Of a DNA stretch of 64,000 bases, positions 36,287-63,978 are shown in pieces. The stretch comes from Plumapathes pennacea (Eukaryota > Cnidaria > Anthozoa > Antipatharia > Myriopathidae): NCBI GenBank assembly GCA_964036295.1, contig OZ038470.1:7903078-7967077 (forward strand), read 5' to 3'. The notes below the pieces were generated by a model. It was not told where the DNA came from. It did not search any database and saw only the letters and a list, made by a program, of their open reading frames with translations. Numbering within the stretch: the first letter of the stretch is position 1; every line of letters begins with the position of its first letter. The translations under genes and the position numbers were made by a program.

Positions 36287-36365
36287 CACGAGAGGTAGGT
36301 GATACTCGAGTTTAAATGACGATCACAAATGATAGAGTGAGACGATAGAGTAACAACATTTTTAT

Positions 36366-36935: not shown

Positions 36936-36940
36936 GATTT

Positions 36941-38312
36941 CTATGCAGATACGGTGTCATCAAAAAGCACAGAGCCAAGCATGTCAAGTTGAAGTACTGA
37001 GGTGTAGAACAGTAGGAATATGGCTTTCGTCTGGTTTGATGTGACCGGCTCAAATCGCAGTGTGAAGCGTTGGCTACCGTGCGGGAGTTTATAGAGAACG
37101 GGGTCTGTGTAATCATCTCCAGGCGTAAAGTCAAATATATACATGTTTTAGCGTGTGTTAAATGTCTTTTTATCGATTCGGATACCATGCCCTGTGGCCT
37201 CAAACATCTTGATGAAACGTCGATAGGATTCCAAGGGGTCTTTCACTAGATCGATTTCATCCCATCCTCCATCTCCATCGGTCTCAATTTTAACCAGATT
37301 GTTTCTCGTAAAGTGAAAGGGGTTAAGTGATTTGCCATCATTGTTGAAGGGTTTCTCAAAGTATTTCTGTGGTTGTAACATCAAAACAATTCTTTTGGGC
37401 ATAGGGCCTGGAGGAACCACGTCAGCCAAATGATGTTGTCGAAGATTGTCTGGGATTGTAAAGTCTCGCATGACAACATTATCTAATACATAACGGGCTT
37501 TTCCACCCGAGGCACTGGCCAATCGCTTTTCCAATCGTAGGGCATAGGAGGGATTGATCATTGGATGATACAGCATCAGGTAGGGTTTCTCAGCTGTACT
37601 TACGCTTGCTGTGATGTTAAGGGCATTTGTCATCATCAGTGGCCAATTGTTGCCAAATGGATAGAATTTAATATTGATATTGACTTGAGGTGGGATGTAC
37701 TTGTGGGTGGCAAATACAGGAATTTGATTCAGAGGTAGAATAAAGGGTTTGTCACCAGTGTATCCAGGTTCACCGTCACCTCTATCATCAGCTGTAAAGA
37801 TTTTGCGCTGGTTGAACCCATCATTATCCCCTATATCATCATGTGCCGTGTCAATGGGGAGGTAGCCCTGCAGCGCTCCCCATGTTTTCTTGTCGTCGTC
37901 TGACAAGTTAAAGAAAGCTTGAAACCATTGAATGAAAGCAAAGGATTTGGGTGAAGGGGTGGTGACTTGACGTCCATTGATTTTTATCTCTATGTGAGAG
38001 AACACAGAGAAGGCCATGTTGTTGATCATGCCAACCTTATCGTCACCCCATTCGCCCCCCATTTTTGTCAGGTGAATGTGGAAGTACAAATCGTGTCAAA
38101 TCCATCCATCTCTCCCGGCTGTCTAGATCAAATTCGATCGGATTGATTGCATCATTTATCGGGTACACTTTGCGAGGCTCTACACCAAATAGAGAGGTAT
38201 CTACAGGAGGGTCAGTGAAAAAATCTAATCCGTCAGTTTGGATCTTAGCCCCCTTGATCTTGGATGCTCCAGAACCAGTAACTTGCTCAACATGTCGAAT
38301 ACTCCGCTTCAT
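36941..38312 (-). pseudogene. major capsid protein (hexon-like double jelly roll), broken twice
   Basis: Three consecutive open segments together cover a protein of the usual Polinton length (roughly 460-470 aa): an N-terminal part (38312 to about 38085; ATG; DPPVDTSLFG), the main body (about 38089-37148; with NGRQVTTPSPKSFAFIQW and LMLYHPMINPSYALRL) and a C-terminal beta-strand part (37144-36941). The first two are in different frames, so there is a frameshift at about 38080-38090. The second and third are in the same frame, separated by one TAA (37148-37150). Neighbouring genes are intact, so this copy seems decayed specifically here, or has assembly errors. Confidence 0.82.
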
Positions 38313-38442
38313 TGTCAGATGATAATGATGTATGAGATTAAAGGATCGTCTTATTTTATACCTTCTCCCTCCGATTCAAATACAAAAGACACATACAAGG
38401 ATTGGAAGAACAAAAACAATTTTATTTCCTCATATATGTTAT

Positions 38443-38907
38443 TTACATGAATACGTTGTTATCCCAAGATCCTACAAATGGTGGAGGGCGTTGGACATTT
38501 ACTGTTTTTCTGCCAGACCTTTTAAGACCTTTAGAACCTTTTCGACCTGATCCTGACTGCATCGCTATCTTTAAAGCCTTTGTTAGGTTTGCTTTCCCAA
38601 TGTTAAGTGTCCGTTTTCCTAGACGTTTAGCTCTGGTTTTAATCGTTCTTTTTATTGGTGCCCCACCAACAACATCATGGATGGCACCCTGTGCTTCTGA
38701 CAAACCAGCCTTCAATAGTTGTTTACCCACGTCTTTCGCTAAAGGTACAAACCGACGCCCCGCACGACGTGCAAATGATCCTAGCCCTCGGCCCCGTTGA
38801 GGTGTTACGGTAATGGGGCCTTGGGTTAGAAAAGGTCGCATTCCACGACCCAGCTGAGGGTAAGCAATTACGCCAACGTGACGGTTATATCTGTTCATTG
38901 ACCTCAT
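38443..38907 (-). CDS. pVI/core-like basic virion protein
   Basis: About 154 aa from ATG MRSMNRYNRHVGV; the frame continues upstream into the penton-like gene, but this start avoids overlap. Gly/Arg/Lys-rich (RGRGLGSFARRAGRRFVPLA, KGSKGLKRSGRKTVNV) with amphipathic stretches, as in adenovirus-type minor core or pVI proteins. Lies between the penton-like and major capsid genes. Confidence 0.6.
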   Translation of the reverse strand: MRSMNRYNRHVGVIAYPQLGRGMRPFLTQGPITVTPQRGRGLGSFARRAGRRFVPLAKDVGKQLLKAGLSEAQGAIHDVVGGAPIKRTIKTRAKRLGKRTLNIGKANLTKALKIAMQSGSGRKGSKGLKRSGRKTVNVQRPPPFVGSWDNNVFM

Positions 38908-38941
38908 TGTGATAACAATACGAGTTCTGTTAGATGTGATC

Positions 38942-39796
38942 TTAGTTATATAGTCTGTGTCGGTCCCACCCTTGACGTCTTCTAAAATGAAGCAGAATAT
39001 TAACACTTCCCCAACTGAAACTCATAGGATTGTCATGATCGTCTCGAAGCCATACATGTAAATGCTGTATCATCATAGGCTTGACAGGAATGTACAGAGG
39101 AATGGGATAGTTAATTATATGAGTCAGGGTAGTCCTCTTTATTATCAATCCAGGATTATGAACCGATGCTAGCAATGGACGTTTGGCCCCATTCACAATC
39201 CGATCCTGGATAAAGTCGGCATAGAGAAAGAAACGCTGAATCTGATTCGTAGGGTCTATGGTCAGATCTGGTTTGTGATCTAAATGGATAGCATTTTCGG
39301 GTGAGATCGTTTGTGACGACTTTGTTTGATGGCTGAGGGGTCTGAAAACATCATCTAACTTTGTTGGATTATAGATATCATATCGTTTCAATCCATCTTT
39401 ACTTGCATCATTTTCTAACATTGTCCCATCGAGACTTCTATGTGCTGATGGAAATAGAAGGACCGAATATGTGGGAATAGTTGATCCATAAGGGTCTTGC
39501 TGTGCGTAATGGAGGGCCTGACAGAGGCGGGCATTGGCAAAGATAGTTGCCTTATTATTAACCTCATGTATAAGAATTCGTTGTGGTGTACTTTCAAAGG
39601 TTTTATAGACCCACACAGGCCAGTTGAACTCAGGGTAAGAAAACGCAGCATCAGTCTGTTTTTTAATTTGCTCCACTATCTCTTCAGATGTATCGTAAAT
39701 TCCGGACTGAAGGGTGAAAAGAAGGCTACGATGTCCATGGCCAACCCACTGAGCGTGAGAACCAGTGATCACTTTATTCCAATGAGTAAAGGGCAT
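38942..39796 (-). CDS. penton-like minor capsid protein (single jelly roll)
   Basis: About 284 aa from the first ATG (39796; an upstream GTG at 39817 is less likely). The C-terminal half has the recurrent features of Polinton/adintovirus vertex proteins: INYPIPLYIPVKP, HVWLRDDHDNP and SWGSVNILLHFRR. It forms the fivefold vertices in related particles (family knowledge). Intact, and the outermost gene at this end of the module. Confidence 0.8.
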   Translation of the reverse strand: MPFTHWNKVITGSHAQWVGHGHRSLLFTLQSGIYDTSEEIVEQIKKQTDAAFSYPEFNWPVWVYKTFESTPQRILIHEVNNKATIFANARLCQALHYAQQDPYGSTIPTYSVLLFPSAHRSLDGTMLENDASKDGLKRYDIYNPTKLDDVFRPLSHQTKSSQTISPENAIHLDHKPDLTIDPTNQIQRFFLYADFIQDRIVNGAKRPLLASVHNPGLIIKRTTLTHIINYPIPLYIPVKPMMIQHLHVWLRDDHDNPMSFSWGSVNILLHFRRRQGWDRHRLYN

Positions 39797-39817
39797 CTCA
39801 TTTTTACTATAAGTCAC

Positions 39818-42076
39818 GGCCGCGGTTTTGATACAAAAACTTTACCTACCCCAAATCCGAAATTTTCGTGTAAATTATTGTGGGCGCGGCATGCGCCTAC
39901 AAATGTATCTAGAGGGTGATACATGTCGCACAGCTCGACCAAAAGTTTTTTTATAGTTGTTTGCTGTGTATGCCACTATAATTTCAAAGGATGAGACATT
40001 AATTGGACGACGGATATATTTTTTAAATTCGAGTGGAATGGTGGCCCACCTTTTTTTTTTCATTTATAGATCGATCAAAAACAGGTTTTTCACCGCTTTG
40101 CCGAAGATGCATGCGCTAATACAGCATCGGTGAAAGTCAAAGGACAAGAGACAGAGATATTTGCTAAATTCGAGTGTAATGATGCTGGAGTTGATCAAAA
40201 ATTGCGTTTCTTGGAGTACGGCTAGGTCACAGCCACGACAATTTTTCCCCAACCCCCACACCCTCACAAACCAAATATGACGGCATCATTAACCCTTGTT
40301 CAAGTCGTGCTAGGAAGAGTTTGGACAATCCTGAAACGATTTACGGTATGTACATTTCTCATACAATATACTTCAGGCAAATATAGCGTTTGTGACTACC
40401 TGATTATGTAGTCGCATAAATTGTTGGTATTTCCTTTCAGTGGGGTAGGGTGAGGACTGGCGGTGCGAACTTGTCGATTTTTGCTCGAGAAAAGGGATGA
40501 AATGCCTTTTCTTCAGACGCTACAGTGTACAAAACACGGAAAGAACCGCATAGAGCGTAGAAAATGGATTTGAGCGTTGTATGCGAAATAGTCGTTTTTT
40601 GCAATGAACCGGGTGAGACTCGTTGAGTTTAGACGCTACAGTGCAGGAAATATAGACAAATGCGCATAAAAATGAAAAAGAAGGCGATGAAGCAGCAGTT
40701 ATAGAAAATAATCACGTTTCTTGCTTTGAACCAGATGAAACTTTCTGCTATTACATACTACACTGACCGAAACACGGGCAAAATCGCACAAAACGCTGAA
40801 ATGATGAATTAGAGTCTAAATTGGCGGGTAAGAAACTTTCAGAAAGTTTGAGGACATTACTTTGGTCCTCAGCATTTATACCATACGCTAGGGGACTAGA
40901 CTCTATTGAGTATTCTCGTAATGTAGATTGGAATGCTTATGGATGTGTAGGGGTTTCCTACTCTCCGTCCATCTGGCACAGTTTACAGCCACCGGGTATG
41001 TGCTTTACTATAATAAACAAATAATCAGTCAGAAAACTGCAGCTTTTGTAAATCTTATTGCTTTAAAGCTGTTGATATCACCAAAGAAATAAGGAATTAT
41101 TTTGACTACTTCTTGCAAATAGTAGGTTGACCAGCCGGCGACATATACGTGGCTAGGGGATGTCCGTGTAATATAGCAAGGCGTGACCTTTTTAAACGCA
41201 AAATTCTTCAAGAACAATCTTGCTCTAAAGACATCAAGAGCGATCACACCTTTGAGTTCCTCGTGAGCATTTATTAAGCATTAATTGTACTGAAGTTATC
41301 AGGTTCAAGATTTCCGAGGGCTTGACTTTTGAGTATGGGTACAGTTTATCAATTCATTGCCGGCAACCGATGCCGGATTACCGGCTTACGACTGATTGAA
41401 GGAAATTGGCCCAAAACAAGGGCGCCACCTTCGAGCTTATGATGGTGAGAATCCAATAAAACTAAGTCACTAAAACCAAGGCTATAGCAAACAAATCTGA
41501 CTTCCCCTCAAATATATATCAACCAAATGCCACTTGCGAGGTTGCAAAAAATATAACAAAACTGCGCAAGGTGTCAAGCAATGTGCTTTGGGATGTGGGG
41601 ATCTTCAATTCTTACTGACACAGTGAAGCATCTACCTTAACATCCACAGAACCTTCCAGCATATTTGCGGCTTCTGTTGCGGACAAAAAGCGGATTTGAA
41701 GGTTGCTACGCGCGTAATATCAGACAACATTCTCCAACCTTTGCACCATAAGGTACTCCCAAGAAGCTGACAGAGCTATTTTCCACGGGCATGAAACATT
41801 GAAACAGCAAACAAGGTGGCAATGAAGCTACAGGCCTACCTGACTGATAACTATTGGAAAAAGCCAGGGTGATTGTGAACAAGTTGAACTAGTCGGCAAG
41901 TGGTCGGTAACGTGGTCAGTAACGTGGTCGGTATGTGGCTGGTAAGATTTAGTGGTCGGTAAGTGGTCGGTAGTGTTTTTCATTTCGGATAACGTTTATT
42001 TGAAGCGCTAAATGAATCATTCACTTTTATTAACGTGGTGGCTCTTAAGAGAGCCGTTGTTTTGAGTGGCAGGCCA
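39818..42076. other. repeat-rich flank to the right of the capsid module
   Basis: No gene recognised and no polymerase or integrase motif seen. Contents: two diverged sequences sharing TTAAATTCGAGTG (about 40022 and 40165), three degenerate copies of about 120 bp at 40500-40800 and a GGTCGGTAA-type simple repeat at about 41886-41975. Confidence 0.45.
40500..40800 (+). repeat. degenerate tandem repeat of about 120 bp
   Basis: GACGCTACAGTG at two places and a variant TACATACTACACTG at a third are each followed by ..ACGGAAAG/ATAGACAA.. and CGCATA/CGCACA. The units end in GAACCGGGTGAGACT or GAACCAGATGAAACT. Strongly diverged. Confidence 0.5.
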
Positions 42077-48886: not shown

Positions 48887-51800
48887 TTATAATTCAAATT
48901 GTTCATATCTGCGAGGGATGTGGATCTGTCTCCCACTGCGTGTCCTCTGTTCTGTACATCTGGTCGGATTTGGTATCCTGATGTCTGCGGGTTCTGGGGG
49001 TCCTGTATCGATCGTTGCATCAGGGCCACCATCAAGATGGACAGTTACTTGTGCTCCTCCTTCTGGAACCTCTTTTGAGCATACATCCTGTCCTCGGTGG
49101 TTCCCACTTCTCTCATCTGTGGTGTTTTGAGTGCCGAAACACGGTTTCAACCGATCATAGTGAACTATTAATCTTCTCTTTCCTCCTTCCAACTTAATTC
49201 TGTAGGTCACACCAATGTCGCCCCTGTCGTCAAATCGCTTTTTGACAATGTAGGGTCCTACCCAAGGGAGTACAGTTTTGTTTGCTCGACCTTTGCGCAC
49301 TGTTGGATCTAACAGCCAAACACGAGCTCCTACAGAGTATGCATGTTCTTTGGCCCACTTGTCATACCCATGTTTCTGTCGTTTCCGTGCTCCATCCAAA
49401 TTTCTGTTGGCTACTTCAAAGGCATCCCGCAAAACCTTCTTGAGATTCCTTGCATAGCTGGTGGCAGAGCTGTACGGCAGATGGTTAGGGGGATCCACCG
49501 TAATCATAAGATCCACAGGCAGCCGCATTTCCCTACCACGTGAGAGGAAGAAAGGTGTGTAACCAGTACTGTCATGGTCAACTGAGTTGTATGTCATAGC
49601 AATGAACCCTAACTGTTTGTCCCAGTCGTCTGGATGCTCTTCCGTGTGTTTGGCAATCATAGCTATGACAGTTCGATTGAACCTTTCAATCAGTCCATTA
49701 GACTGTGGATGGTAGCCTGTTGTTCTTGTCTTCCTAATCTGGAGGCTTTCACATACTTCTCGCACCAATTTAGCATCAAAGGATCCACCTTGATCAGTAT
49801 GTAACTGTGTGATGACTCCATGCTCCGGCATGTACTGGTGGAAAATAACATCTGCAATAGTGTCGGCTCGTTGGTTCTGTACAGGGTACAGGTTCACAAA
49901 CTTTGTGAATGCATCCATCAATGCTAACACATACTTGTTGCCACTGGCTGTCTTAGGTAGTTCAAGCAGGTCAGCATGGACAACTTCTCCTGGACGAGTA
50001 ACCACCATCTGCCGTAGGAAAGCACGCCTTCTTGGAGTGGGACCTTGTCTCCGTTGGCAGATGTTGCACTCTTTGCACCATCTGTCAATATCAGATGTCA
50101 TTCCTGGCCAATAGTACCTCGTCCGAGCTCTGCAGAGGGTTTTCTGATATCCCATGTGGCACAATTCATCATGTAGTTCCTGGAATATTTTCTTGGTGCA
50201 ACTCTTTGGCAGAACTATTTGGTGGTGGACATTGTTTCTTCCAGGACTCTGATATGTCCGGTACAGAATTCCATCGATCACCAGGAGTTTTTTGTTTTGG
50301 AACTCTCGATGCAATGTTCTCAGAGTGCGGCTCTCGATCTCTGAGGGTCTGAGAAGATTGTTGGGACTGTCGAACCATGTGAAAACCTGGGTGATGTCTT
50401 CATCATTTCTCTGAAGTTCCTTTATGTCAAATGTTGGTTGCCCCAGTGAATCTGTCTCAGATGGACTTATGTTCCGTACATGTACTGGTGTTGGCTGAAA
50501 TTCTGGCAATGAATTGGCTTCTGTTTCGTCCATTTGAGGGCTGGCATTTCCCTCAATTTTCTCTGTTTGACAAGTCTTATCTTGGACCAGTTTCTGAGGT
50601 GACCTTTGTTCTTCATGTTTGTCGAAGCCAAGACGACTCAAAGCATCTGCAAGGGTGTTCTGTGTGCCATCAATGTGCTGGATGATGAAATCATATTCTT
50701 CGATGTCCGTCAGCAGTCTCCCACGTCGACCATATGGGTCCTTCATTTCTCTCAGGTAGAGAAGTGGTTTGTGATCTGTCTTCAAAACGAACTGATTTCC
50801 AAGCAGGTAATGTCTGAAGTGCTGTATAGTGTCCCGTATGGCAATGGCCTCTCTGTCATACGTTGAGTATCCCCGTTCTCGCTTTGACAGAGCTCTGCTG
50901 AAGTAAGCGATTGGGCGTAGTTGGCCAGTGTTGTCTTCTTGCAGTAGGGCACCGCCAATTGCTACATTGGAGGCATCCGTTGTGACCAGGAACTTCTTGT
51001 CTGGGTCCGGGTGAGCAAGTACTGGTGCAGTGGTAAGACAATGCTTGAGTTTCTGGAAGGCTGTGTCCACTTGATCATTCCACTCAACCTTGTCTTTCTC
51101 CAGTAGCTGGTAAAGAGGCTTTGTGATCTGGGCGTAGTTAGGAATAAACTTGCGCCACCAACCACATACACCCAGGAACTGCTGTACTTCCTTGACATCT
51201 CGAAGGGTACTCCATTGACACACAGCAGCCGTCTTCTCTGCATCTGGGCTGATGCCTGTTTTGCTCACTCTATGTCCAAGCCAGATGACTTCATCCATGG
51301 CAAGGTGACACTTCTTTGCCTTGACTTTCAATCCATGTTGTCTCAAACAGTTGAAAATTTCTTCCAGTCTCTGGATGTGTTCGTCAAAAGTCTTGGATAT
51401 AACACAAATGTCATCCATGTACAAGAGGAGGCGGTCTTGGGGAATGGTGTTGAAAACTCTTTGCATGAGTCGACACCAAGTGGCTGGACTATTCCGCAGT
51501 CCTTGTGGCATCCTTGTCCATTGCCATAGGCCAGTTGGGGACCGAAAGGCAGTCTTCTCTCTGTCTTCTGGTGTTAGGGGAACCTGCATGTAGCCTTGTG
51601 CCAAGTCAATGGTGCTGAAGTAGTTGGCATCGTTCAGTTTGTTTAAACAGTCCTGAATATTTCCAGTTGGAAAGGAGTCTGGTTTTGTTACTTTATTCAA
51701 GGGTCTGTAGTCTACACAGATGCGGACAGTTCCATCTTTCTTTTTGACTGGCACGATTGGAAATGCCCACGGAGAATGTGATGGTTCAATCTTCCCTTCT

Positions 51801-52840
51801 TGATGTAACATGTCAACTTTCTTGTTCACCTCTTCAACACTTCCCAATGGGAGACGCCTTGGAGGGCAGTTTATTGGGGGTCCTGAAGAATCAATGCGAT
51901 GATGAATGGTATTTGTGAGGCCTTGGTTCCCCGGTGATTCAAACACATCTGCATTCTTCCGCAAGAAGGATTTCATTTGAGAAGTCTGCTCTTCAGACAA
52001 ATTCACACCTAACTGTATATCTTCCAGTGGATCATATGCAGGTGTTTCTGAGGGGGGGCAATGAACTGTCGCTTCAGCGGCATTCTCTGTAGGAACATCT
52101 TGGACTTCAAAGAGTTCTGCCACTGCCTGGCACCTCCAAACTTTGATGGGGTGATCCCAAACATTTGTGACACATATGGGAATATGTGTCTGACCTTCTT
52201 GCACTTTAACTGCTGCGACTGCTAAGCCTGTGCGACCCACAAACTCGGGAGTAGGTTCTACCACTCCAGTGAAGGGAGTGGTTGTAGCAGTATCATCCAA
52301 ACGAGTGAACAGGAATCGTTCTTGTCCTGGGTGGATTACTGTTGATTCCATTAATCGTACTTTGCATACCTTTGCTGTTGTCAACGTTGCTGTTGTGGGG
52401 CAGGGTTCCATATTGTTCATGATAATATTGTCAATTTGAATGGTTCTTGCAGCACAGTCAATGTTTGCCCCAAGCTGACTCAGCAGGGGAAAACTCAGAA
52501 TTCCATATTCGATGCCCTTAACTGCATAAAACTTCACATGTTCAAGTCTCTTTGTTTGAGCAACATGGATGGTTGTGGTTGTGACCCCTAAACAGCGAAC
52601 AGGGGTCTGATCTACACTGACAGGTTGAACTCCACTGACAGGAGTAAGGGAAAAACAGTGTTTCTCTGCAAACTCAGCAGGTAAAAGATTCACTTCTGCT
52701 CCTGTGTCACACAGACATTTCAACTTCCGGTTGTTGATAAAAAGATCTGCCATTAATAATTGTGTTTGGGCTGAGAGAGTGCTGTGTATCATTGGCTGTT
52801 CAGTTACTGTCTCTTCTCTCTCAGCCCTCTCCTGTTTAAA
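48887..52840 (-). CDS. Ty3/gypsy pol polyprotein
   Basis: About 1,317 residues, read after a -1 frameshift from gag. Domains in order: aspartic protease (CLCDTGAEVNLLP, about residue 46), reverse transcriptase (VRICVDYRPLN, FSTIDLAQGYMQ, catalytic YMDDI near residue 480), RNase H (FLVTTDASNVAIGGALLQ; DHKPLLYLRE), integrase with HHCC zinc finger (HDELCHMGYQKT, CKECNICQRR), a DDE core (VHADLLELPK, LHTDQGGSFDA, HPQSNGLIERF) and a GPY/F-type C-terminal module (LPWVGPYIVKKRF). No stop within the frame. The protein has no own ATG near its start; the first codons overlap the end of gag. Confidence 0.95.
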   Translation of the reverse strand, partial: FKQERAEREETVTEQPMIHSTLSAQTQLLMADLFINNRKLKCLCDTGAEVNLLPAEFAEKHCFSLTPVSGVQPVSVDQTPVRCLGVTTTTIHVAQTKRLEHVKFYAVKGIEYGILSFPLLSQLGANIDCAARTIQIDNIIMNNMEPCPTTATLTTAKVCKVRLMESTVIHPGQERFLFTRLDDTATTTPFTGVVEPTPEFVGRTGLAVAAVKVQEGQTHIPICVTNVWDHPIKVWRCQAVAELFEVQDVPTENAAEATVHCPPSETPAYDPLEDIQLGVNLSEEQTSQMKSFLRKNADVFESPGNQGLTNTIHHRIDSSGPPINCPPRRLPLGSVEEVNKKVDMLHQEGKIEPSHSPWAFPIVPVKKKDGTVRICVDYRPLNKVTKPDSFPTGNIQDCLNKLNDANYFSTIDLAQGYMQVPLTPEDREKTAFRSPTGLWQWTRMPQGLRNSPATWCRLMQRVFNTIPQDRLLLYMDDICVISKTFDEHIQRLEEIFNCLRQHGLKVKAKKCHLAMDEVIWLGHRVSKTGISPDAEKTAAVCQWSTLRDVKEVQQFLGVCGWWRKFIPNYAQITKPLYQLLEKDKVEWNDQVDTAFQKLKHCLTTAPVLAHPDPDKKFLVTTDASNVAIGGALLQEDNTGQLRPIAYFSRALSKRERGYSTYDREAIAIRDTIQHFRHYLLGNQFVLKTDHKPLLYLREMKDPYGRRGRLLTDIEEYDFIIQHIDGTQNTLADALSRLGFDKHEEQRSPQKLVQDKTCQTEKIEGNASPQMDETEANSLPEFQPTPVHVRNISPSETDSLGQPTFDIKELQRNDEDITQVFTWFDSPNNLLRPSEIESRTLRTLHREFQNKKLLVIDGILYRTYQSPGRNNVHHQIVLPKSCTKKIFQELHDELCHMGYQKTLCRARTRYYWPGMTSDIDRWCKECNICQRRQGPTPRRRAFLRQMVVTRPGEVVHADLLELPKTASGNKYVLALMDAFTKFVNLYPVQNQRADTIADVIFHQYMPEHGVITQLHTDQGGSFDAKLVREVCESLQIRKTRTTGYHPQSNGLIERFNRTVIAMIAKHTEEHPDDWDKQLGFIAMTYNSVDHDSTGYTPFFLSRGREMRLPVDLMITVDPPNHLPYSSATSYARNLKKVLRDAFEVANRNLDGARKRQKHGYDKWAKEHAYSVGARVWLLDPTVRKGRANKTVLPWVGPYIVKKRFDDRGDIGVTYRIKLEGGKRRLIVHYDRLKPCFGTQNTTDERSGNHRGQDVCSKEVPEGGAQVTVHLDGGPDATIDTGPPEPADIRIPNPTRCTEQRTRSGRQIHIPRRYEQFEL

Positions 52841-53805
52841 GGACACTCAACAGGCATGGGTGCAGGGCAATTTCGAGTTAGATGACCATCCTGCCAACAC
52901 CTTTTACAGGCTTTTCTGTATTGGCATGCTTTGGCCAGATGTTGTGTTGACCCACAGGTAAAACAGCTTTTGATCTCTGGCCGAGATGTGGTACCACTGG
53001 TAGAGGGGTTCCTGTTCCGGGAGTAGTTTGCATTTGGGTGCACTGTTGGATAGCCTGGGTGATGGGGTGCCTGGGTGGATTGGGCAGGAGTGTTATAGAG
53101 TTGTGGTGCTTGATGAAGTGCTGCCACAACACGGTCCACAATCCGTTCTTCCATCTCCTCCAGATCCCGTGTTCACATCACGTCATCTGATGTGACAGTG
53201 CAAACAGACTTGCTTTTTCCTCTCTCTGTCTTAGTGATCCGTGGTTGGAGGTCGCAGGCTGCCTTGAGTATGAGCTTTGGGTCCGTGATGTCCAACTTGT
53301 GCAATTGTAAATGCTGTCCTAAGCTGGCATCAATCGAGTTAATCCCTGACATTAAAGCTCTGATAAAATGTTCGGTAATCTGTACTTTGTGTTCTCCAGC
53401 GTCTAGGTCGGCTGTTGGGAAAGCTTTCTGATATTTCTTTTTAATCCTGCCCATCAGTACGTCCAGTGGTTCATCAGTGTCCCGAGTGATGGTTGTGAGG
53501 TCCGTAAGGTGTTCGCCTACGGTCTTCCGCTCACCGAACTCGTGAGTGAATTTCTCCTTGAAGGTTTTCCAGTCTTTCACCACTGTTTCGATTGTCTCCC
53601 AAAAATCATCTGCTCGGCCAGTAAGGAGAAGAGGAGCCTGAGCTATCAACTGTTCGTCGGTCCACTTCTTCGCTCGCTGAACCTTTTCCAACTGTCGTAA
53701 CCACGGTTTTGGATCACTTGATCCGTCGTACGTAGAGAGTACGATTTTGAGGCCATCCGATTTGGAGTTGGCGTTATTACCTCCTTGTTGCTCTTGGTCC
53801 GGCAT
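52804..53805 (-). pseudogene. gypsy gag with one in-frame TGA
   Basis: The frame opens at ATG MPDQEQQGGNN (53805) and is also open upstream through the primer-binding site into the LTR. It encodes a capsid-like segment (DPKPWLRQLEKVQRAKKW, LLLTGRADDFWETI) up to a TGA at 53173-53175, then continues in the same frame to two CCHC-type knuckles (CFTCGSTQHLAKAC, CKRCWQDGHLTRNC) and stops at 52804. Because the LTRs are identical, the TGA is recent, a sequencing error, or a readthrough signal; the sequence does not decide. Confidence 0.8.
52834..52840 (-). promoter_or_regulatory. -1 ribosomal frameshift site between gag and pol
   Basis: On the element strand the heptamer TTTAAAC lies in the gag frame as CCT TTA AAC, the canonical X XXY YYZ layout. 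Slipping back one base leads directly into the pol frame. The gag stop follows about 30 nt later. A downstream stem or pseudoknot was not modelled. Confidence 0.8.
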
Positions 53806-54964: not shown

Positions 54965-55099
54965 TGTTTTATATATAGTTCCAGAGAACCGCTTCCCACC
55001 CCACAAGTTCATCCACTGTCTGATCTATCAATCTCAAACAATACAGCTATAAGTAACTCAAGCCCAACTCTTGGTCTTCCTAAGACCAGAGGGTTTAAA

Positions 55100-57898
55100 A
55101 TGGCTGAAATTAACATAACTAGTCTCCCAAAATATATTGACCAACTCAGAGTCTATATGCTCACTAAACCAGTGGATGTTCTTGCTATAAATGAAACCCG
55201 CCTGGATAACAGTATTAGTAGCGAAGAAATGAGTATACCCGGCTATGTGCTTGAAAGAAAGGACCGAAATAGAAATGGAGGGGGCGTGGCACTATACATC
55301 AGGAATGTTATTGATTACGATTGTGATAACACACTAACTCTGAGTGGGCTAGACCTGGAATGGCTCTGTGTTAAAATCAAGAAACCAAAAGCCAAACCCT
55401 TCTTAATTGCAACATGGTATAGGCCCCCAAGCTCACAAATAAATTTGATGGACACATTTGAGTGCCTCCTAGAAAAACTAGAATCACAAGAGATTGAAGT
55501 TAACATTCTTGGTGATTTAAACTGCGATGTTAGTGCCACTCCCTATGACCACCATACATCACGATTACTTGAAATATGCAATACTCTCCAATACCAGCAG
55601 CTTATAAGACAGCCAACACGAGTCACAAAAGAGACATCTACCACAATAGACCTTTTTTTGACAAATGAAACTGCAAAATTTTCTCATCATGGAGTATCAG
55701 AGATTGGTATCAGTGATCATAATCTAATATATGCTATACGAAAAATACCGTCCCTGAAGTCGAGTCCTAAGATCATTGAATCAAGACAATATAGAAACTT
55801 TGATCAAAATAGATTTAGGGAGGATCTTATGTTGATCCCATGGGAAAATATAGAAAATTACAACGATCCCAATTTTGCCTGGCAAACATGGAAAGAAACT
55901 TTCCTTTCTGTTTGTAACCATCATGCTCCACTAAGACGCAAAAGGGTACGAGCCAAGCCAGCCCCTTGGTTAACATCAGAACTTAAAAGCCTCATGTTTG
56001 AAAGGGATAAGATAAAGAGGATAGCTAAAAGGCTCAATACAGGAAACAGTTGGTTGGAGTATAAACATATTAAAAATAGAGTCAATTATAGTATTAAATC
56101 TGCTAAAGAGGAATACTATAATTTGTACTTCAGAGAAAATTCTAAGAATATAAAACAAACATGGAAAGGCATTAATAACTTACTGGGCAGCAGAGTTAAT
56201 ACAATATCTATTAAAAATATCATATATAATGATATAAACCATACTACCCCAGAGGAAATCAGTAATGCTCTAAACTCCCATTTTACTGAAATTGGGCCAA
56301 AGCTAGCTTCTCGACTGCCACCCTCTTCAAGGCAGTTCTCAAACTATATCACTCCTACTGAACACTCCTTCAGTATTAAAGAGACATCAAATACAGAGGT
56401 TATTGAGTTGATAAAAGCTCTACCAACAAATAAAGCTTGCGGTTTAGATGGTATCAGCACTAGGCTGTTAAAGGAGGCAGACACAATAATAGCCCCATCT
56501 CTTACCTTTTTATTTAACCTTTCTATTAGAACTATGACCTTCCCAAATGATTGGAAAATTGCTAGAGTGACACCATTATACAAAGATGATAAGAAGTGCA
56601 TTCCAGATAATTATAGACCTATTTCAGTTCTGCCAGCTGTCACTAAGCTCATAGAAAGGATTATCTTTAACCAACTTTACAGTTATCTTACAGAACATGG
56701 CATACTTACAGATTCACAATCAGGTTTCCGACCCCTACATTCCACATTGACGGCTCTACTAGATGCCACAAATGACTGGTACCAAAATATAGATAAGGGT
56801 CTTCTAAACGGAGTTATTTTTCTGGACCTAAAAAAGGCCTTTGACACCATGGACCACAAAATTCTGTTAGGTAAACTGAAACTTTATGGTGTCGACCAAG
56901 CAAGCCTAAACTGGTTTGCTTCATACCTTACAGAACGAAAACAAAAAACTTTTGTTGATGGTGTGCTGTCAGATAGCTGTACAATAAAATGTGGAATACC
57001 CCAAGGTTCTATCCTTGGTCCGCTACTCTTTATAATCTATATAAATGACCTTCCAAATTGTGATCTCTACTCTAAAGTACGGATGTATGCAGATGATACT
57101 AGCTTAACTATCGCAAACTCAGACGAGAAAATACTAGAACAACAGATGAATCATGACCTATGCAAAGTACATACATGGCTAAAAGCAAATAAACTGAGCC
57201 TGAATGTGGTCAAGACAAAATATATGATAATAGCTAGTCAATATAAGATAAAGCATCTTGAGCATCAGTTTCAAGTACTGGTAGATCACAAACCCCTGCT
57301 AAGGGAAACAACATATAATTGTCTAGAAGTTGAGATAGACCAATCATTAACTTGGAAGGAGCAACTAGACAAAATTTTAAAGAAAGCATCAGGGGGGATT
57401 GGAGCTCTAAGGCGTGTCAGACATCTTGTACCATATGATACATTACTCACGATGTACAGCTCTCTTGTACTACCATATTTCGATTACTGTAGTTCAGTAT
57501 GGGGAAGCTGTGCGAAAGGGATGGCTGACAAACTACAAACCCTCCAAAACAGAGCTGCCAGGGTGGTGACCCTCTCAAATTATGATAGGCGGTCAGTTGA
57601 CACACTGGATGAACTAAAGTGGGATAATCTTGGGACACGAAGGTCAAAACAGTTAGCTATATTAATGTACAAGTCAATTAATGAAATTGTACCAAACTAT
57701 TTGACCCAAATCTTTGATAGTACAAACTCTGTACATTGCTATAATTTAAGAAACTCATCATATAACATATTTGTACCAAGACCACACACTGAAGCAGGGA
57801 AACATAGCTTCCATTATAGAGGGGCGGTTCTCTGGAATAACCTATCGAATGACCTTAGAAGTCAGACAAATTTAAGATCCTTTTTAAATCTTTTATAA
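55100..57898 (+). CDS. LINE ORF2: AP endonuclease and reverse transcriptase
   Basis: 932 aa from ATG, uninterrupted. N-terminal apurinic endonuclease: AINETRLDNS, GGGVALYIRN, WYRPPSSQ, ILGDLNCDV and GISDHNLIYA (catalytic Asp-His). Central reverse transcriptase: KACGLDGISTRLLKEA, NYRPISVLPAVTKLIERI, SQSGFRPLHST, FLDLKKAFDTMDH, GIPQGSILGPLLFIIYINDL and catalytic YADDTSL. The C-terminal extension contains YFDYCSSVWG. The order and motifs place it in the CR1/L2/Rex1 group. The intact frame suggests a fairly recent insertion. Confidence 0.93.
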   Translation: MAEINITSLPKYIDQLRVYMLTKPVDVLAINETRLDNSISSEEMSIPGYVLERKDRNRNGGGVALYIRNVIDYDCDNTLTLSGLDLEWLCVKIKKPKAKPFLIATWYRPPSSQINLMDTFECLLEKLESQEIEVNILGDLNCDVSATPYDHHTSRLLEICNTLQYQQLIRQPTRVTKETSTTIDLFLTNETAKFSHHGVSEIGISDHNLIYAIRKIPSLKSSPKIIESRQYRNFDQNRFREDLMLIPWENIENYNDPNFAWQTWKETFLSVCNHHAPLRRKRVRAKPAPWLTSELKSLMFERDKIKRIAKRLNTGNSWLEYKHIKNRVNYSIKSAKEEYYNLYFRENSKNIKQTWKGINNLLGSRVNTISIKNIIYNDINHTTPEEISNALNSHFTEIGPKLASRLPPSSRQFSNYITPTEHSFSIKETSNTEVIELIKALPTNKACGLDGISTRLLKEADTIIAPSLTFLFNLSIRTMTFPNDWKIARVTPLYKDDKKCIPDNYRPISVLPAVTKLIERIIFNQLYSYLTEHGILTDSQSGFRPLHSTLTALLDATNDWYQNIDKGLLNGVIFLDLKKAFDTMDHKILLGKLKLYGVDQASLNWFASYLTERKQKTFVDGVLSDSCTIKCGIPQGSILGPLLFIIYINDLPNCDLYSKVRMYADDTSLTIANSDEKILEQQMNHDLCKVHTWLKANKLSLNVVKTKYMIIASQYKIKHLEHQFQVLVDHKPLLRETTYNCLEVEIDQSLTWKEQLDKILKKASGGIGALRRVRHLVPYDTLLTMYSSLVLPYFDYCSSVWGSCAKGMADKLQTLQNRAARVVTLSNYDRRSVDTLDELKWDNLGTRRSKQLAILMYKSINEIVPNYLTQIFDSTNSVHCYNLRNSSYNIFVPRPHTEAGKHSFHYRGAVLWNNLSNDLRSQTNLRSFLNLL

Positions 57899-58086: not shown

Positions 58087-58184
58087 TATTATTATCAATT
58101 AGTATAGGTTATACGGATTTCTAGAAGAGCATTTATATGAGAGAAATACCGTGTTTAAATAAAGATTGATGATGATAACTGGGG

Positions 58185-58235
58185 TTGTCAGTAGTAACTA
58201 GGAAGAACAGGCCATTGTATGCGTTTGAGCTATGA
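58185..58235 (+). repeat. 51-bp perfect inverted repeat (left arm)
   Basis: Exact reverse complement of 63790-63840; contains TTGTCAGTAGTAACTAGGAA. The arms bracket the Kolobok element at about 5.5 kb distance. The left arm starts just after the LINE 3' tail. Confidence 0.9.
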
Positions 58236-58412: not shown

Positions 58413-58848
58413 ATGAGTGATACGGAACTGAGAGGTTTCAAAAATCGTACGAAGTCGAAAGAAAAGGAGTTAATCAATTACAATATGGCTCAAGCGTTTG
58501 TCGTAAGTATCGCTTATATGATTGTATGTGTTGTATTTTCTCTATATCTCTTTGCATGCTTGTACGTTTAGTGTTTCTAAAAAGAACCAAAACATTTTAT
58601 GTTCTTTTAGGATCTCATGAAAGGAAAGTAGGAGAGAACGACGTGGAGAAAGTTGCGCCCAGGAGACGTATCGAGTTTGAGGTAAGCGTCTCCGGAAAAA
58701 GATGTATTTTTATACCCTACTTCTGTTAATATATATATTTTGCTTGGACAGACGTTACCCGACTCGACGACCTTCCAGCCTTTTTGCCCAAACGAACAAA
58801 CTTCATCTGTGGCAGCAGCAGATGCAGATGTGGCTACTGATGTAAATG
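58413..58848 (+). other. possible broken small gene upstream of the Kolobok element
   Basis: ATG at 58413 opens MSDTELRGFKNRTKSKEKEL to a GTAAGT donor at 58503. Two exon-like stretches follow, bounded by AG and GTAAGC/GTGAGT (58611-58682, 58752-58848; HERKVGENDVEKVAPRRR and TLPDSTTFQPFCPNEQ). The last two join in phase. The first does not join the second in the open frame (it meets TAG after six codons). It may be a decayed gene interrupted by the transposon, or a wrong model. Confidence 0.3.
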
Positions 58849-58918
58849 TGAGTGAGAAATTGTTCTATTTTGCTTCTGATGTACAATGAAAGTGCTTTTA
58901 TTTTCACGCTCACTTTAA

Positions 58919-59113
58919 AGGGGAACTCAAGGGTAATTTGAAGTAAATTTCCTATCCCTCTAAATGCTGTTTAGACTCAGTTTTGGTAGGTATTTTTGAA
59001 AACGTCTCAGTATTTTTGAAAGAAAACCTATCGGAAGCTGGCTGCCATCTTGCTTATCATCGCGGGAGCAGAAACAGTCAGCGGACTACGTTTGTGACGT
59101 CATATCGTCAAAG
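58919..59113 (+). repeat. left terminal inverted repeat of the Kolobok-type element
   Basis: Starts AGGGGAACTCAAGGGTAATT and ends near TGACGTCATATCGTCAAAG. The reverse complement of 63313-63515 matches it over the whole length with a small number of substitutions and a short length difference. Confidence 0.9.
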
Positions 59114-59182
59114 GTGAGTCGCGTCGCTTTTCACATCCATCACTTGCTGTGGTTGTTATAACTGCATAAAAATACAGTCGAG

Positions 59183-60165
59183 ATGTCTTCTGACGGGGAA
59201 CTAACTTCGGACTCTAGTCAATCTAGCCTCTCAAGTGTAAGCGACGATGAAGAAATTTCTATACCTGTCGGTGTTATCGAACCGTACCGATTTGAACCGG
59301 AGTACTCGACATCATCTGAAGGAGACGCCGAATCGGGCGAAGAAGACGCTCATGAAGAAGAAGAGGCAGGGGAAGATCGGAGAGCAAATTTAGATTGGTA
59401 GGACTTTCGAATATGTTTTTCTTATGTTTTTCTTCGTCTTTTGGTTCGATTTGAGCATTTTGTGGCACCACCGACAGAAGCATTTTGAAGATTTTGCAGC
59501 TTGCGCGTATTTGTCAGTTGTCACATGTTTGTTGTCAAAGTCGCAATAAAGTTGACGGATTGTCGAGAATTGTTCATTTGTTTATTGCCTAGCAGATACG
59601 CTGTTAGGTATTTTAGTGAGATTAGACAAACATGTTTTCTTATTTCATTGTTTTGTTGTGGTTGTTGTTGTCGTTTTTTTCACGGAGATTTACTGTGTAC
59701 ATATTGAGAAAATCTGACAGAAACATTTGATTGGGTACACTTCTTTTCTGGTAATGTTATTCTAGGTGCAGGTGCGATAATTGTCAAATTATGGACCGAG
59801 TTGAAGAGAACAAATGCTGCCTTGAAATGGATAGGATAACTGATAAGAATAGTGAAGTTGCAGAGCCTCCACCTTGCATTACGCAACACCCTGGCTTTGC
59901 ACCTGTATGTCTAAACAAATGGGTTTTACAGACAGCTTGGTATCAATATAGGCAGCAGTATCCTAACAGATATGAGGGGCCTGAGCATAAATTGAACAGG
60001 CACATTGCATACAGACAGCTAGTGAGGTGGTGTTGGGGAGTTCTGGGGAAAGAAATAAGGGTTGTTTTGCCAGCTTGTGCAGTGAGCTGTATACGTGCAC
60101 ACTTTCCTCCCCCAGGACTGGAAGTGGACTTCATTTTTGAAGGATTCCGTTTTGCAGATGAATGA
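59183..60165 (+). CDS. P2X7-type cytoplasmic ballast domain protein carried by the transposon
   Basis: Two exons: 59183-59397 (ATG MSSDGELTSDSSQSSLSSV; Ser/Asp/Glu-rich and disordered) and 59766-60165 (TGA), joined in phase 2. About 204 aa. The second exon carries the Cys-rich core of the vertebrate P2X7 C-terminal ballast: WCRCDNCQIM, ENKCCLEMDRI, CITQHPGFAPVCLNKWVLQ, WYQYRQQYPNRY, AYRQLVRWCWGVLGKEIRVV and LPACAVSCIRAHFP. In P2X7 this region binds zinc through Cys/His residues and guanine nucleotide (established for the vertebrate protein). No membrane segment or channel domain is present. The frame is intact while the neighbouring transposase is broken. The role in the element is unknown; nucleic-acid or nucleotide binding is a guess. 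Confidence 0.88.
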
Positions 60166-60537
60166 GTTGTGGGTGCTGTAAAAAGCATCACTTTGTAATG
60201 GAACAGCAAAATCTTAAGCACCATATAATCAAATAAAAAATCAAGTACATTTGTTTTTAACTTACATGCTGATTCAGAAGTAAATTATGTACTCTTGCCT
60301 GAGTGTTCAGTTTTGTTAATGTCATTTCTGATATGGCTGCTGCCTCTTTTTGAAATTGAATGAGAAGCCCAGTACAAGACGTTTCTTACGAAAGTGAGTT
60401 TGATTTGCATGAACATCAACATGCAAGTGAAATTAATTTTCATAAAAAACATTTCATACTATGCCTTGTTTTGAAACAGCGGCAACAGTCATCTTGAAAT
60501 GGCTTATTAAACATTTACTGTAATTGGTGTATTTGCT

Positions 60538-62455
60538 CTATCTTGTGAAACGTGACCTTTGTAGTTGTATGAGTTCCTCTTTGCTTGGTGCAGGTGTGGT
60601 TGCAATATTTTTGGGGAGGTTTCTTCCAACAGGCTCCTGAAGTACCTCTCCTTCAAGGCAAGCATCGACTACATCACCCATTAGGCCTTTTATGTGGTTG
60701 TAGGATTTTGCCTCTTTGATGGGCTTAGCAATCCAATGCTTCTGTGCCTTAGGGAAACTGACTTTGTACCGCAGCTCTCCAGAACTTGCCACTGCTTGCT
60801 GTCTTTCGGCATGAGCATTGTGGTCAAGGGCTGTCAGCTGAGTGCGAGCCAGCATACCCCCAAATGAAAAGTGCTCACGCTTGGGGCAATATTTCAACAT
60901 CAAAGAGTGGTAGACCTCCAGCTCACCAGTGTGGCAAAACTCTGTAAGCTTTCTAATGTCCTTCAGAAGCCTGGGATTGGTCACAATCTCCTCCAGTGCA
61001 ATATGGGGTGCAGATCCTGCCACCAACCATTTCTTTTTTCTCAACTGGCGTGCAGACAAGGTGGGATGTGAGCAGCTGTGAATGTGAGTACAGCCATTCC
61101 ACGTGTGCTTGTTGGTGACATGGTGAAGAACTGACACCCACTTCTCTTGTAGCACATCTGCACTGCCCCCACAAGTTGCTGAGCTCCACCACAGATGATT
61201 AGAGACTGACCTAATCCAAGGATTTAGGTCTTCACAAGCCTTAACTTTCGCTTTTGCCCTCAACTTTTTTACCACCCACTTAGAGACATGCCAGACATCA
61301 TACTGGTGAGAAATGTCCCGGTGATCCTTCTCCATTACACTACAAATAGAAGTATGCCTGTCAGTAGCAATCCTATTGACAATCACTCCTTCCTCCGTCA
61401 GCTCCCGAAGGCATCTTTGGAATCCCTCCTTCTCCATGGCATTTGATGATGTGACTTCGGTTACCTGAACTAGGCTAAAGGTGGTTACTTTACCTTCATC
61501 ACTCATCATAGTGTATGTGCCATATTTGGCACTGTGACCAGGGCTGTCACTTCGCCCATCACCAACTAAATTTACAGGTCCCCCATCCCTTGTGGCTTGG
61601 AGAACCTCTCTCTTTGCCTCAGTCCAAGCCTTGTTCACCACTGGAAACATATTTGTTCTGAATATCATAGAATGTTGTATGGCTGAAGAACTGTAGATTT
61701 AGAAAGGAGGCAAGCTGACTCACTCTATAATATGTGTTCCCACTGAATAGAATGGCTGCAGATGTCAAAAGATTTCCAGCAGGCATCCTGTTGAATAGTG
61801 GTTGAGAGTTCCAAAGTGTTTCATGCCCACTCAAGCAAAACAGCTTTACTGATAACATGCTGCCACAGGTTGACTCTCTAAGACTTGTTACAGTGTTACC
61901 ACAGCTTGGGCAGTATGTCAACAGGGAGTGTAGGCAGGACTTAAATACTAAGTACTTTGGTTCATCGTCGGCCTCACCTGCATCCACTGAATTATTATCA
62001 GATGTGACAGAATGATCTGAACTACATGTATCTGACAGTTCATATTCATTTTCATGACATGGTGATGTAATTGGGGATGATGGGGGTTCAGTGTCGACAT
62101 CAGATGGGTAGCACTGGTCAAACATTGTTTCCCTTTTTCTCCTTTTACCACAATTTAATCCATCAACCTGCACTCCTTTATCAGAGAGAACCTTGGATTC
62201 TGTTTGAGCAGCAACAGTCTTTGTCACAACATATCTTGCCCCCACACAACACTGGGTTCCAATTTCTCTCGTAGATGGGGCCTGGCTAGATGCAGTGCTA
62301 CTACCAGAATTATCAGTGCCATACTCATCATGGACTAACTCTTCCACTGAACTATCTCTACTGGTAGAGCTAGCATTTTGTTGCAGATGATGCAAAACCT
62401 TATGATAAATAACAAATGTATGCAGTTGACAAGGAAAGCATGCAAGCTATGTTAT

Positions 62456-62486
<31 letters not shown>

Positions 62487-63267
62487 TAACAGTTCTTGTA
62501 CGCATTTTGCAAAGCCTCAATATTGATAGTAAATTTACATAGTCATATGACTGTCCTTGTAGTATAAAACATCAGACCAGCAAATATATTAATATATACC
62601 AAACTTGAGACAGCTGCATGTCTAAAACTCTTGACCACTACTGTATATGAGATAGATTCCTTTTAAATTATATCATTCCATCTTTAAGAGGTTGCTAACA
62701 ATGAACAATTTTCGATCTAAATTTTTCAGTTCATGGCAACCGGTCAGTATGAAGAGAAATAATCATCCAAATATAAAGAGAAATGAGAACCTTACTGAAG
62801 CACAAAAAACGGCAAGGGATATTGAAACAAACAAAGAGCACTTTATACCATCACTAAAACTTTTATTTGGTTCAAATACACGCAGGAAGCATACATGTGC
62901 GGCATATGCGCTATCAAAAACTCACCTCTTCGTGCTGACGTTGGTTCGCACGCTTCTCGCTAGCTATTCTACTTTGCTTCAGCTGCGGTCCAAAAGGAAA
63001 CACTGACGGTACAGCTTCTCGTTTAAGGCGCCTTTTTGTTTTTTGCCCGACCAATAATTGTGCCTTTAAATCGGACTCAAAACAATCTTCGCTGAAATGC
63101 TCGCTGCACACATAGCAGTTCTCGTGTGGAGGCAAATTATCTCGACGAAGTCTAGCGATCCACGATTTTCTCAGGCCTTTCTCCTTTGGAATGCGGTGGT
63201 AACTAATTCTTTTATCGGATGACTTTGAAGAGTAATTCGTGCAGCCAGGGACACAACAATGAACCAT
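60538..63267 (-). pseudogene. Kolobok-type transposase with N-terminal THAP domain, one frameshift
   Basis: Exon 1 (62926-63267, ATG MVHCCVPGCTNYSS) is a THAP zinc finger: the Cys pair in CCVPGC, CSEHF supplying Cys and His, and the AVPSVFPF end motif; donor GTGAGT. Exon 2 begins at 62398 in phase and holds a Ser/Thr-rich linker, CPSCGNTVTSLRE, then a transposase core. The core has NLVGDGRSDSPGHSAKYGTY, ATDRHTSICSVM and HQYDVWHVSKWV, with conserved acidic residues expected of a DDE enzyme. The frame shifts by one base at about 61640-61650, where the segment ending FYDIQNKY meets the one continuing FPVVNKAW. Otherwise open to TAG-type stop at 60538. This copy is probably inactive unless the shift is an error. 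Confidence 0.82.
62455..62486 (+). repeat. (TAA)n microsatellite
   Basis: About ten TAA units in the intron between the THAP exon and the main transposase exon. Confidence 0.85.
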
Positions 63268-63312
63268 GATTACTTCAAACAAATACTTGAAGCTCTTCAG
63301 ACCGAAACGTGG

Positions 63313-63515
63313 TTTGACGATATGACGTCACATATCAAACCGCTGACTGTTTCTGTTCCCGCGATGAATAAGCAAGATGGCGGCAGGTTTCCTGTTCCTC
63401 CGATGGGTTTTCTTTAAAAAATACTGAGACTTTTTCAAAAATACTCACCAAAACTGAGTCTAAACAGCATTTAGAAGAATAGGAAATTTACTTCAAATTA
63501 CCCCTGAGTTCCCCT
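63313..63515 (-). repeat. right terminal inverted repeat of the Kolobok-type element
   Basis: Ends GAGTTCCCCT followed by the TTAA duplication. The THAP start codon lies about 45 bp inside it, so the repeat probably includes the transposase promoter. Confidence 0.9.
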
Positions 63516-63519
63516 TTAA

Positions 63520-63789
63520 AACTTGTCCCCCATTCCACGCTCATATTAAAACTAGTTCCCATTCCACGCTCACTTTAACACTAGTTCCCATTCCACGCTC
63601 ATATTAAGGGGGAGGGGGAGGGGGAGGACTAAGTTTCGGAAACAGGAGCCACTTTCGTTGTTCAACAAGGAGTGGTGGTGAAAACATAGCATTTTTTCAG
63701 AGTGTCCCACATACTTTTGGCCAGGATTGTAGTTCCATTCCACGCTCACTTTAAAACTTGTCCCCATTCCACGCTCACTTTAGTCTTTT
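63520..63789 (+). repeat. minisatellite flank with Tc1-like remnant
   Basis: ATTCCACGCTCACTTTAA or its ATATTAA variant, followed by AACTTGTCCCC or AACTAGTTCCC, recurs about every 30 bp at 63532-63606 and again at 63733-63782. Between them, about 63684-63731, CCCACATACTTTTGGCCAGG resembles Tc1/mariner termini. The same minisatellite motif (CACGCTCACTTTAA) abuts the left end of the Kolobok element. Confidence 0.65.
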
Positions 63790-63840
63790 TCATAGCTCAA
63801 ACGCATACAATGGCCTGTTCTTCCTAGTTACTACTGACAA
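63790..63840 (-). repeat. 51-bp perfect inverted repeat (right arm)
   Basis: Reverse complement of 58185-58235 without mismatch. Lies 12 bp before the block shared with copy A of the small gene. Confidence 0.9.
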
Positions 63841-63852
63841 GCCTTTTGATAA

Positions 63853-63978
63853 GCAAATTTAAGAAAGAATCATGTAATAATTAAAACTAATGAATTTTAC
63901 AGCTATAAATATATTAGCAAAGCTGCGCGTATTTTCACTTTAATCTTTTGTTCGCAAACGTGAAAAAAGCTCATCAAC
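63853..63978 (+). promoter_or_regulatory. promoter region of MPLFNEN gene copy B
   Basis: Complement of 44930-45053. TATAAATATATTAG lies at about 63903, some 75 bp before the ATG, compatible with a TATA box and a short 5' UTR. Confidence 0.6.

What the first reader, a model, noticed from the sequence alone, without database searches (positions are those of the whole stretch)
58919..63515. DNA transposon carrying a P2X7-type ballast domain gene opposite a THAP transposase
Seen: TTAA duplications, ~195-bp inverted termini, an intact two-exon gene with the unmistakable P2X7 C-terminal Cys-rich core, and a THAP + Kolobok-like transposase converging on it, all inside one element. Known: the vertebrate P2X7 ballast is thought to have been captured by a P2X gene from a free-standing domain. 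Inference: Kolobok-type transposons may be a reservoir and vehicle of this domain, and the domain may serve transposition, for example as a zinc- or nucleotide-binding partner of the transposase.
Basis: partly seen in the sequence, partly recalled or inferred. Interest (0 to 1): 0.88.

Follow-up and report, generated by a model that had tools for sequence, protein, structure and literature searches.

The report
Kolobok transposon carrying P2X7 ballast gene
This is a jumping gene that carries, next to its own transposase, the same small zinc-binding domain that vertebrates later attached to the P2X7 immune receptor; the link was published in 2022, so this is a well-preserved new example, with one fresh clue about how its two genes may be switched on together.

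Summary
Window 58919-63515 is a 4,597-bp DNA transposon flanked by TTAA, with about 200-bp inverted termini. It has an open two-exon gene for a P2X7-type ballast protein and, tail to tail with it, a THAP + DDE transposase (frameshifted in this copy). A near-identical copy sits at another TTAA on another contig. In 20 of the 20 next-best ballast loci of this genome, THAP or transposase sequence converges on the ballast as here.

It is not new in kind. Kojima and Bao (2022, PMC9587614) described this protein as KolX of the Kol0 lineage of Kolobok transposons, and derived P2X7 from a P2X4-like gene fused to KolX. So 'reservoir and vehicle' is supported but already in print.

Not found in print in my searches: the palindrome TGACGTCA (CRE/ATF-type) lies about 172-199 bp inside both ends of 10 of 12 mapped elements (five families), just upstream of both start codons here; some other families lack it. 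KolX is closer between families than the transposase in 129 of 136 pairs, and keeps three of five residues that bind GDP in rat P2X7. I read KolX as a co-expressed transposition cofactor; its biochemistry is inferred.

The parts
58915..58918 (.). TTAA target-site duplication, left
   Evidence: sequence; same arrangement at the L011 copy
58919..59112 (.). left terminal inverted repeat (AGGGGAACTC...)
   Evidence: 100% identical to the C1 copy over the 195-bp query
59044..59052 (.). GCCATCTTG, YY1-like motif (name recalled), mirrored in the right TIR
   Evidence: 8-mer GCCATCTT
59095..59102 (.). TGACGTCA palindrome (CRE/ATF-type; name recalled), 177 bp from the left end
59183..59397 (+). KolX exon 1: acidic, with PYRFEP motif
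59766..60165 (+). KolX exon 2: ballast domain (P2RX7_C) and stop codon
60538..61698 (-). transposase frame, C-terminal part: GDGRSDSPG, TDRH, DVWH, C-x-H, LEVYHS
   Evidence: overlaps the next frame out of register (2-bp difference near 61648)
61619..62446 (-). transposase frame, middle part (exon from about 62398 by inspection)
62926..63267 (-). THAP exon of the transposase (ATG 63267; GT donor after 62926, phase 0 to the next exon, by inspection)
63323..63330 (.). TGACGTCA palindrome, 186 bp from the right end, 56 bp before the THAP ATG
63373..63381 (.). CAAGATGGC, mirror of the left YY1-like motif
63313..63515 (.). right terminal inverted repeat
63516..63519 (.). TTAA target-site duplication, right
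   Evidence: sequence

Best explanation
A recently mobile Kolobok DNA transposon of the KolX-bearing (Kol0) type. Shown: TTAA flanks, long inverted termini, two convergent genes, a THAP/DDE-type transposase with the Kolobok signature, a KolX protein homologous in sequence and predicted fold to the P2X7 ballast, recurrence of the pair in about ten diverged transposase lineages of the genome, and a TGACGTCA palindrome mirrored in both termini. Inferred (about 0.6): the termini act as mirrored promoters, so KolX and transposase are made together from one set of host factors. Inferred (about 0.5): THAP binds the element's ends while KolX, an acidic tail plus two-zinc globule with a partly conserved guanine-nucleotide pocket, is a trans-acting cofactor that contacts something conserved (a transposase surface, a nucleotide or a host protein) rather than the fast-changing DNA ends.
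Against: No expression, binding or transposition data. The transposase frame of this copy and of its sister is interrupted as assembled. Pfam found no transposase catalytic domain in either frame, so the Kolobok assignment rests on motifs, THAP, TTAA and KolX; placement inside Kol0 was not tested by a tree. Some copies lack KolX or the transposase. In L025 and L026 a second transposase lies upstream on the ballast's own strand; in L025 it faces its own ballast, in L026 none was found for it. L019, L021, L022, L023, L025 and L039 show no TGACGTCA near the pair. Ballast and THAP distances correlate more weakly (r 0.34 over 12 loci, 70 of 2000 permutations). L039 is an exception to the slower ballast (5 of the 7 exceptions). 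Transposase rows are made of matched pieces only, which favours its conserved parts.
Confidence: 0.9

Rival explanations
1. Chance capture: a host ballast gene was picked up by one Kolobok element as passenger cargo.
For: Some copies lack the ballast (L033, L034, L035) and one divergent ballast locus lacks a transposase in the 7 kb fetched (L040).
Against: The same convergent pair recurs in about ten transposase lineages, whose distances correlate with those of the ballast; the ballast frame looks to be under purifying selection between families; the pairing is published for other animals.
Confidence: 0.03
2. KolX acts outside transposition, for example as an anti-silencing or host-manipulating protein that protects the element from host defence.
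For: Its exon-2 frame shows no nuclease or DNA-binding Pfam domain; it is closer between families than the transposase in 129 of 136 pairs; it remains open in the transposase-less L014/L016 derivative, which lies at two places with the same deletion.
Against: The L014/L016 copies are young (ballast dS 0.038), so an open frame there is weak evidence; copies without the transposase were found through the ballast, a biased search.
Confidence: 0.25
3. The ballast genes are ordinary host 'P2X7-like' genes and the transposons lie beside them by chance.
For: Public annotation names several such coral proteins 'P2X purinoceptor 7-like'.
Against: TTAA-bounded inverted termini enclose gene and transposase together; two near-identical copies at different sites; convergent orientation in 20 of 20 loci.
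Confidence: 0.02
4. The mirrored TGACGTCA site is a transposase or KolX binding site at the ends, not a promoter element.
For: It is present in both ends at a near-fixed distance from the terminus.
Against: It lies some 180 bp inside, shortly before both start codons here, and about 25 bp before an ATG (MADD...) on the ballast side of L029 whose role was not tested; it matches a widespread animal promoter element (recalled).
Confidence: 0.3

Closest known systems
Kolobok DNA transposons, Kol0 lineage with KolX (Kojima and Bao 2022, PMC9587614)
   Same: TTAA duplication, 5'-RR/YY-3' ends, DDD/E transposase with (C/D)xxH and zinc finger, second protein KolX with the P2X7 ballast and its cysteines.
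   Different: Nothing that separates it was found. The words promoter, CREB, TGACGTCA and guanosine do not occur in that paper's main text, nor does THAP. Position in their tree not tested.
P2X7 receptor cytoplasmic ballast (PF20478; PDB 6u9v, 8trb, 9e3m)
   Same: Seven zinc cysteines, predicted fold, RH-x-AYR motif, R578.
   Different: No P2X channel part; R574 is V and K583 is P; an acidic N-terminal exon instead of the receptor part.
ProtoRAG transposon of lancelet (PMC7481187)
   Same: Transposase gene plus accessory gene, with transcription starts near or in the two terminal repeats, which have promoter activity (passages).
   Different: Unrelated transposase and accessory protein (recalled); there promoter activity was measured, here it is inferred.
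Nanor / free ballast proteins (Rump et al. 2020, PMC7016195)
   Same: Short protein with a C-terminal ballast.
   Different: Described there as fewer than 10 genes per species and without H547 in invertebrates; here the genome gives 113 exon-level matches and H547 is invariant in two alignments of close relatives, though not in L036-L040.

Membership tests
Kolobok superfamily | TTAA target-site duplication | tested here: met
   58915-58918 / 63516-63519; on both sides also at L011, L013, L014, L015, L016, L020, L029, L032, L033; on one side only at L017 and L031
Kolobok superfamily | termini 5'-RR ... YY-3' | tested here: met
   AG...CT; definition from PMC9587614
Kolobok superfamily | DDD/E catalytic residues with (C/D)xxH motif | tested here: met
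   first D 16 of 18 covered rows, second D 17 of 18, DxWH 17 of 18; E 19 of 19 covered rows. Which residues are catalytic is judged by motif; no structure, and no Pfam transposase match.
Kolobok superfamily | zinc finger between second D and E with an extremely conserved third C | tested here: met
   C-x-H in 19 of 19 rows; definition; that this C is the third one is judged by motif
Kol0 lineage | second gene encoding KolX, similar to P2X7 476-595 | tested here: met
Kol0 lineage | transposase branches with published Kol0 families | not tested
   published transposase alignments were not available to me
P2X7 ballast / ZCD domain | seven conserved zinc cysteines in three clusters | tested here: met
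   all seven in the window; 21 of 30 loci rows (window included) have all seven, the nine others are L012, L019, L026, L029, L030 and the decayed or truncated L031-L034; zinc binding itself not tested
P2X7 ballast / ZCD domain | guanine-nucleotide contacts R546 H547 R574 R578 K583 (rat) | tested here: inconclusive
   three of five kept in the window protein; list of residues from PMC7016195
P2X receptor | P2X channel domain | tested here: not met
   only P2RX7_C in the exon-2 frame; exon 1 (72 aa) was not scanned, but the 204-aa protein has no room for the channel part
piggyBac superfamily | piggyBac transposase (also TTAA) | tested here: inconclusive
   no piggyBac Pfam match in either transposase frame at E up to 1, but no other transposase match either; THAP and Kolobok motifs speak against it

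The most novel reading that the evidence does not exclude
KolX-bearing Kolobok elements are two-protein transposition machines built like ProtoRAG: mirrored CRE-type promoters in the termini co-express a THAP transposase and a zinc/guanine-nucleotide cofactor under stronger constraint than the transposase itself. The P2X7 ballast would then be a retooled transposition cofactor whose nucleotide site predates the receptor.
Probability: 0.3. Interest if true: 0.65.

Novelty: new member of a known kind. Interest (0 to 1): 0.38.

Why it matters
It gives a well-preserved, recently mobile animal element family in which KolX could be studied directly, which makes a testable question of what the P2X7 ballast was for before it joined a receptor. 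It also cautions that expanded 'P2X7-like' gene families in animal annotations may be transposon genes: a giant-clam paper counts P2X purinoceptor expansions among immune families (passages in PMC11700175; whether those genes are KolX was not tested).

Tried and rejected
A host gene or chance capture was considered and rejected on the recurrence of the pair. A single-sequence search of PDB chains with the ballast found nothing at E up to 0.01; the profile did. VIA-align compared only Foldseek's own 50 best chains, so other folds are not excluded. Rfam found nothing in 58600-63950 at E up to 1. The YY1-like motif is in both ends of only 5 of 12 elements (WIN, L011, L020, L032, L033) and I draw little from it. 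The PYxFEP motif was found in 11 of 18 proteins with a long N-terminus (11 of the 13 that show W before CxC; the other two have near variants) and upstream of the ballast in 12 of 30 loci: common, not universal. dN/dS among close copies rests on few substitutions and is not tested for significance. Whether the near-constant ballast distance between many families (about 0.3-0.6) reflects constraint or exchange between elements was not resolved. One search looked for transposase downstream of the ballast within 6.5 kb only; upstream ones were seen (L025, L026).

Literature: searches for P2X7 + ballast + transpos, Kolobok + P2X, KolX, five ballast/Kolobok/guanosine terms, coral P2X7-like terms, Kolobok + THAP + accessory, P2X purinoceptor 7-like expansion, terminal repeat + CREB terms (15 of 126 papers listed), Kolobok + CREB (one paper, listing only) and Kolobok + TGACGTCA (none). 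None showed a report of this palindrome in Kolobok ends, but most subscription papers are not held. Seen: PMC9587614 abstract, section 10 and passages; PMC7016195 abstract and sections 9, 11, 13; PMC9859053 passages; PMC7481187 start of abstract and passages; PMC11700175 and PMC10620158 passages.
Full report
WHAT IS THERE. The element runs from 58919 (AGGGGAACTC...) to 63515 (...GAGTTCCCCT), 4,597 bp, between TTAA at 58915-58918 and 63516-63519. The termini are inverted repeats of about 200 bp, 86% alike. On the plus strand a two-exon gene (59183-59397, 59766-60165) encodes 204 aa; splicing creates the WCRCDNC cluster. Its second exon matches Pfam P2RX7_C well above the cut-off. On the minus strand a THAP exon (63267-62926) joins in phase 0, by inspection, to the next exon (from about 62398), and the transposase frame ends at 60538. 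The transposase frame breaks near 61648, where the sister copy has 2 bp more; the sister itself lacks 8 bp near 61886. As assembled, neither is uninterrupted.

RECENT MOVEMENT. A second copy on contig C1 (L011) differs inside the element by 10 substitutions and six indels over 4.6 kb and lies at a different TTAA. In the TIR search the other family members are older or deleted: three on C3 (L031-L033), C2:23352651 (L034: transposase with five stops in the comparison row, 25 aa of ballast left) and C1:12535928 (L035: no ballast in the stretch fetched).

THE PAIR RECURS. The own-genome search gave 113 ballast matches (exon by exon, best candidates only). I fetched ranks 2-21 as L011-L030 and five more divergent ones as L036-L040. 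In 20 of 20 THAP or transposase sequence, and in 4 of 5 transposase sequence, lies downstream on the opposite strand within 6.5 kb; no same-strand transposase match lies downstream in that range. A transposase match as such was present in 16 of 20; L014, L015, L016 and L023 have only the THAP part. L040 has neither in the 7 kb fetched. In L025 and L026 a second transposase lies upstream on the ballast's strand; in L025 it faces a second ballast. L014 and L016 share one deletion (95% alike over 2,296 columns) and lie about 7.8 Mb apart, so a transposase-less derivative with an open ballast frame has spread; both were found through the ballast, so this is no unbiased sample, and the TIR search with that family also shows a 1.2-kb copy without a ballast match.

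CO-INHERITANCE. For 17 loci with both proteins, ballast and transposase distances correlate (r 0.46; 0 of 2000 permutations as high; r 0.41 without two near-duplicates, again 0). Ballast against THAP is weaker (12 loci, r 0.34, 70 of 2000). Seven close pairs agree in both trees; deeper nodes of the ballast tree are poorly supported. The ballast is mostly the slower protein: window against L018, for example, 0.36 against 1.17 in Kimura distance, and lower in 129 of 136 pairs; five of the seven exceptions involve L039 and the other two are near-identical pairs. In five between-family pairs synonymous sites are saturated, with dN 0.17-0.24 for ballast and 0.26-0.43 for transposase, ballast lower in 5 of 5.

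MIRRORED SITE. TGACGTCA lies about 172-199 bp from the terminus at both ends in 10 of 12 elements with mapped termini (five families), at one end in L032, at neither in L033, and in none of the 12 interiors (termini set to within a few bases). Over one element of each of the five families it is in 10 of 10 ends and is, with its two overlapping 8-mers, the only 8-mer shared by all, although those left ends are only 36-62% alike; in 1000 shuffles no 8-mer was shared by all five left ends. L012, L018 and L028 show it at both ends too, 159-186 bp from a TTAAAG. L019, L021, L022, L023, L025 and L039 show none near the pair. In the window the site ends 81 bp before the KolX ATG and 56 bp before the THAP ATG. 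I read it as a CRE/ATF-type promoter element (recalled name). ProtoRAG of lancelet is a measured precedent for terminal repeats that drive a transposase gene and an accessory gene (passages).

WHAT IS KNOWN. Kojima and Bao 2022 identified KolX of the Kol0 lineage as a ballast protein, noted that earlier work had not pointed out that such proteins are part of Kolobok, and concluded that P2X7 arose by fusion of a P2X4-like gene and KolX. The finding is therefore a new member of a known kind. Among the 120 listed homologues the named ones are mostly coral, sea-anemone and soft-coral proteins called 'P2X purinoceptor 7-like' or uncharacterised; most of the 120 have no name. The window's species was not identified; it is probably an anthozoan (inference).

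MECHANISM. Shown: structure, pairing, constraint on KolX, conserved end-proximal palindrome. Inferred: co-expression from the termini (0.6); KolX as transposition cofactor with a conserved partner (0.5); alternative role against host silencing (0.25).

Noticed in passing
window 59095-59102 and 63323-63330; L011-L018, L020, L028, L029, L031: TGACGTCA palindrome at a near-fixed distance inside both element ends across diverged families.
   Followed up: yes
L014, L016 (C1:17640187-17642442, C1:25432416-25434691): Transposase-deleted derivative with one shared deletion at two sites about 7.8 Mb apart, both with an open ballast frame.
   Followed up: partly
window 63608-63738: A roughly 120-bp stretch in the right flank matches at least 39 other places at 97-100%, including a run on C11 spaced exactly 2,005 bp; no Rfam match.
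   Followed up: no
window 58182-58235 and 63790-63843: 54-bp inverted arms, 98% complementary, outside the element: it may sit inside an older element.
   Followed up: no
window 35504-39841: Cluster of minus-strand frames, one with a Pox_A32 match (E 7.2e-6); looks like a Polinton/Maverick (label recalled).
   Followed up: no
window 48887-52846 and 54965-57898: LTR-retrotransposon-type polyprotein (RT, RNase H, integrase) and a LINE-type endonuclease-RT frame.
   Followed up: no
window 42015-42060, minus strand: Histone 3' UTR stem-loop, just above the gathering score.
   Followed up: no
L025: Two ballast genes about 0.8 kb apart on opposite strands, each converging on its own THAP/transposase: two neighbouring elements.
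   Followed up: no
L040 3195-3773: Divergent ballast without a THAP/transposase match in the 7 kb fetched; possible stand-alone gene or remnant among other transposon frames.
   Followed up: partly
window KolX exon 1; P0001, P0003, P0009 and others: Acidic N-terminal part with a recurrent PYxFEP motif, function unknown.
   Followed up: partly
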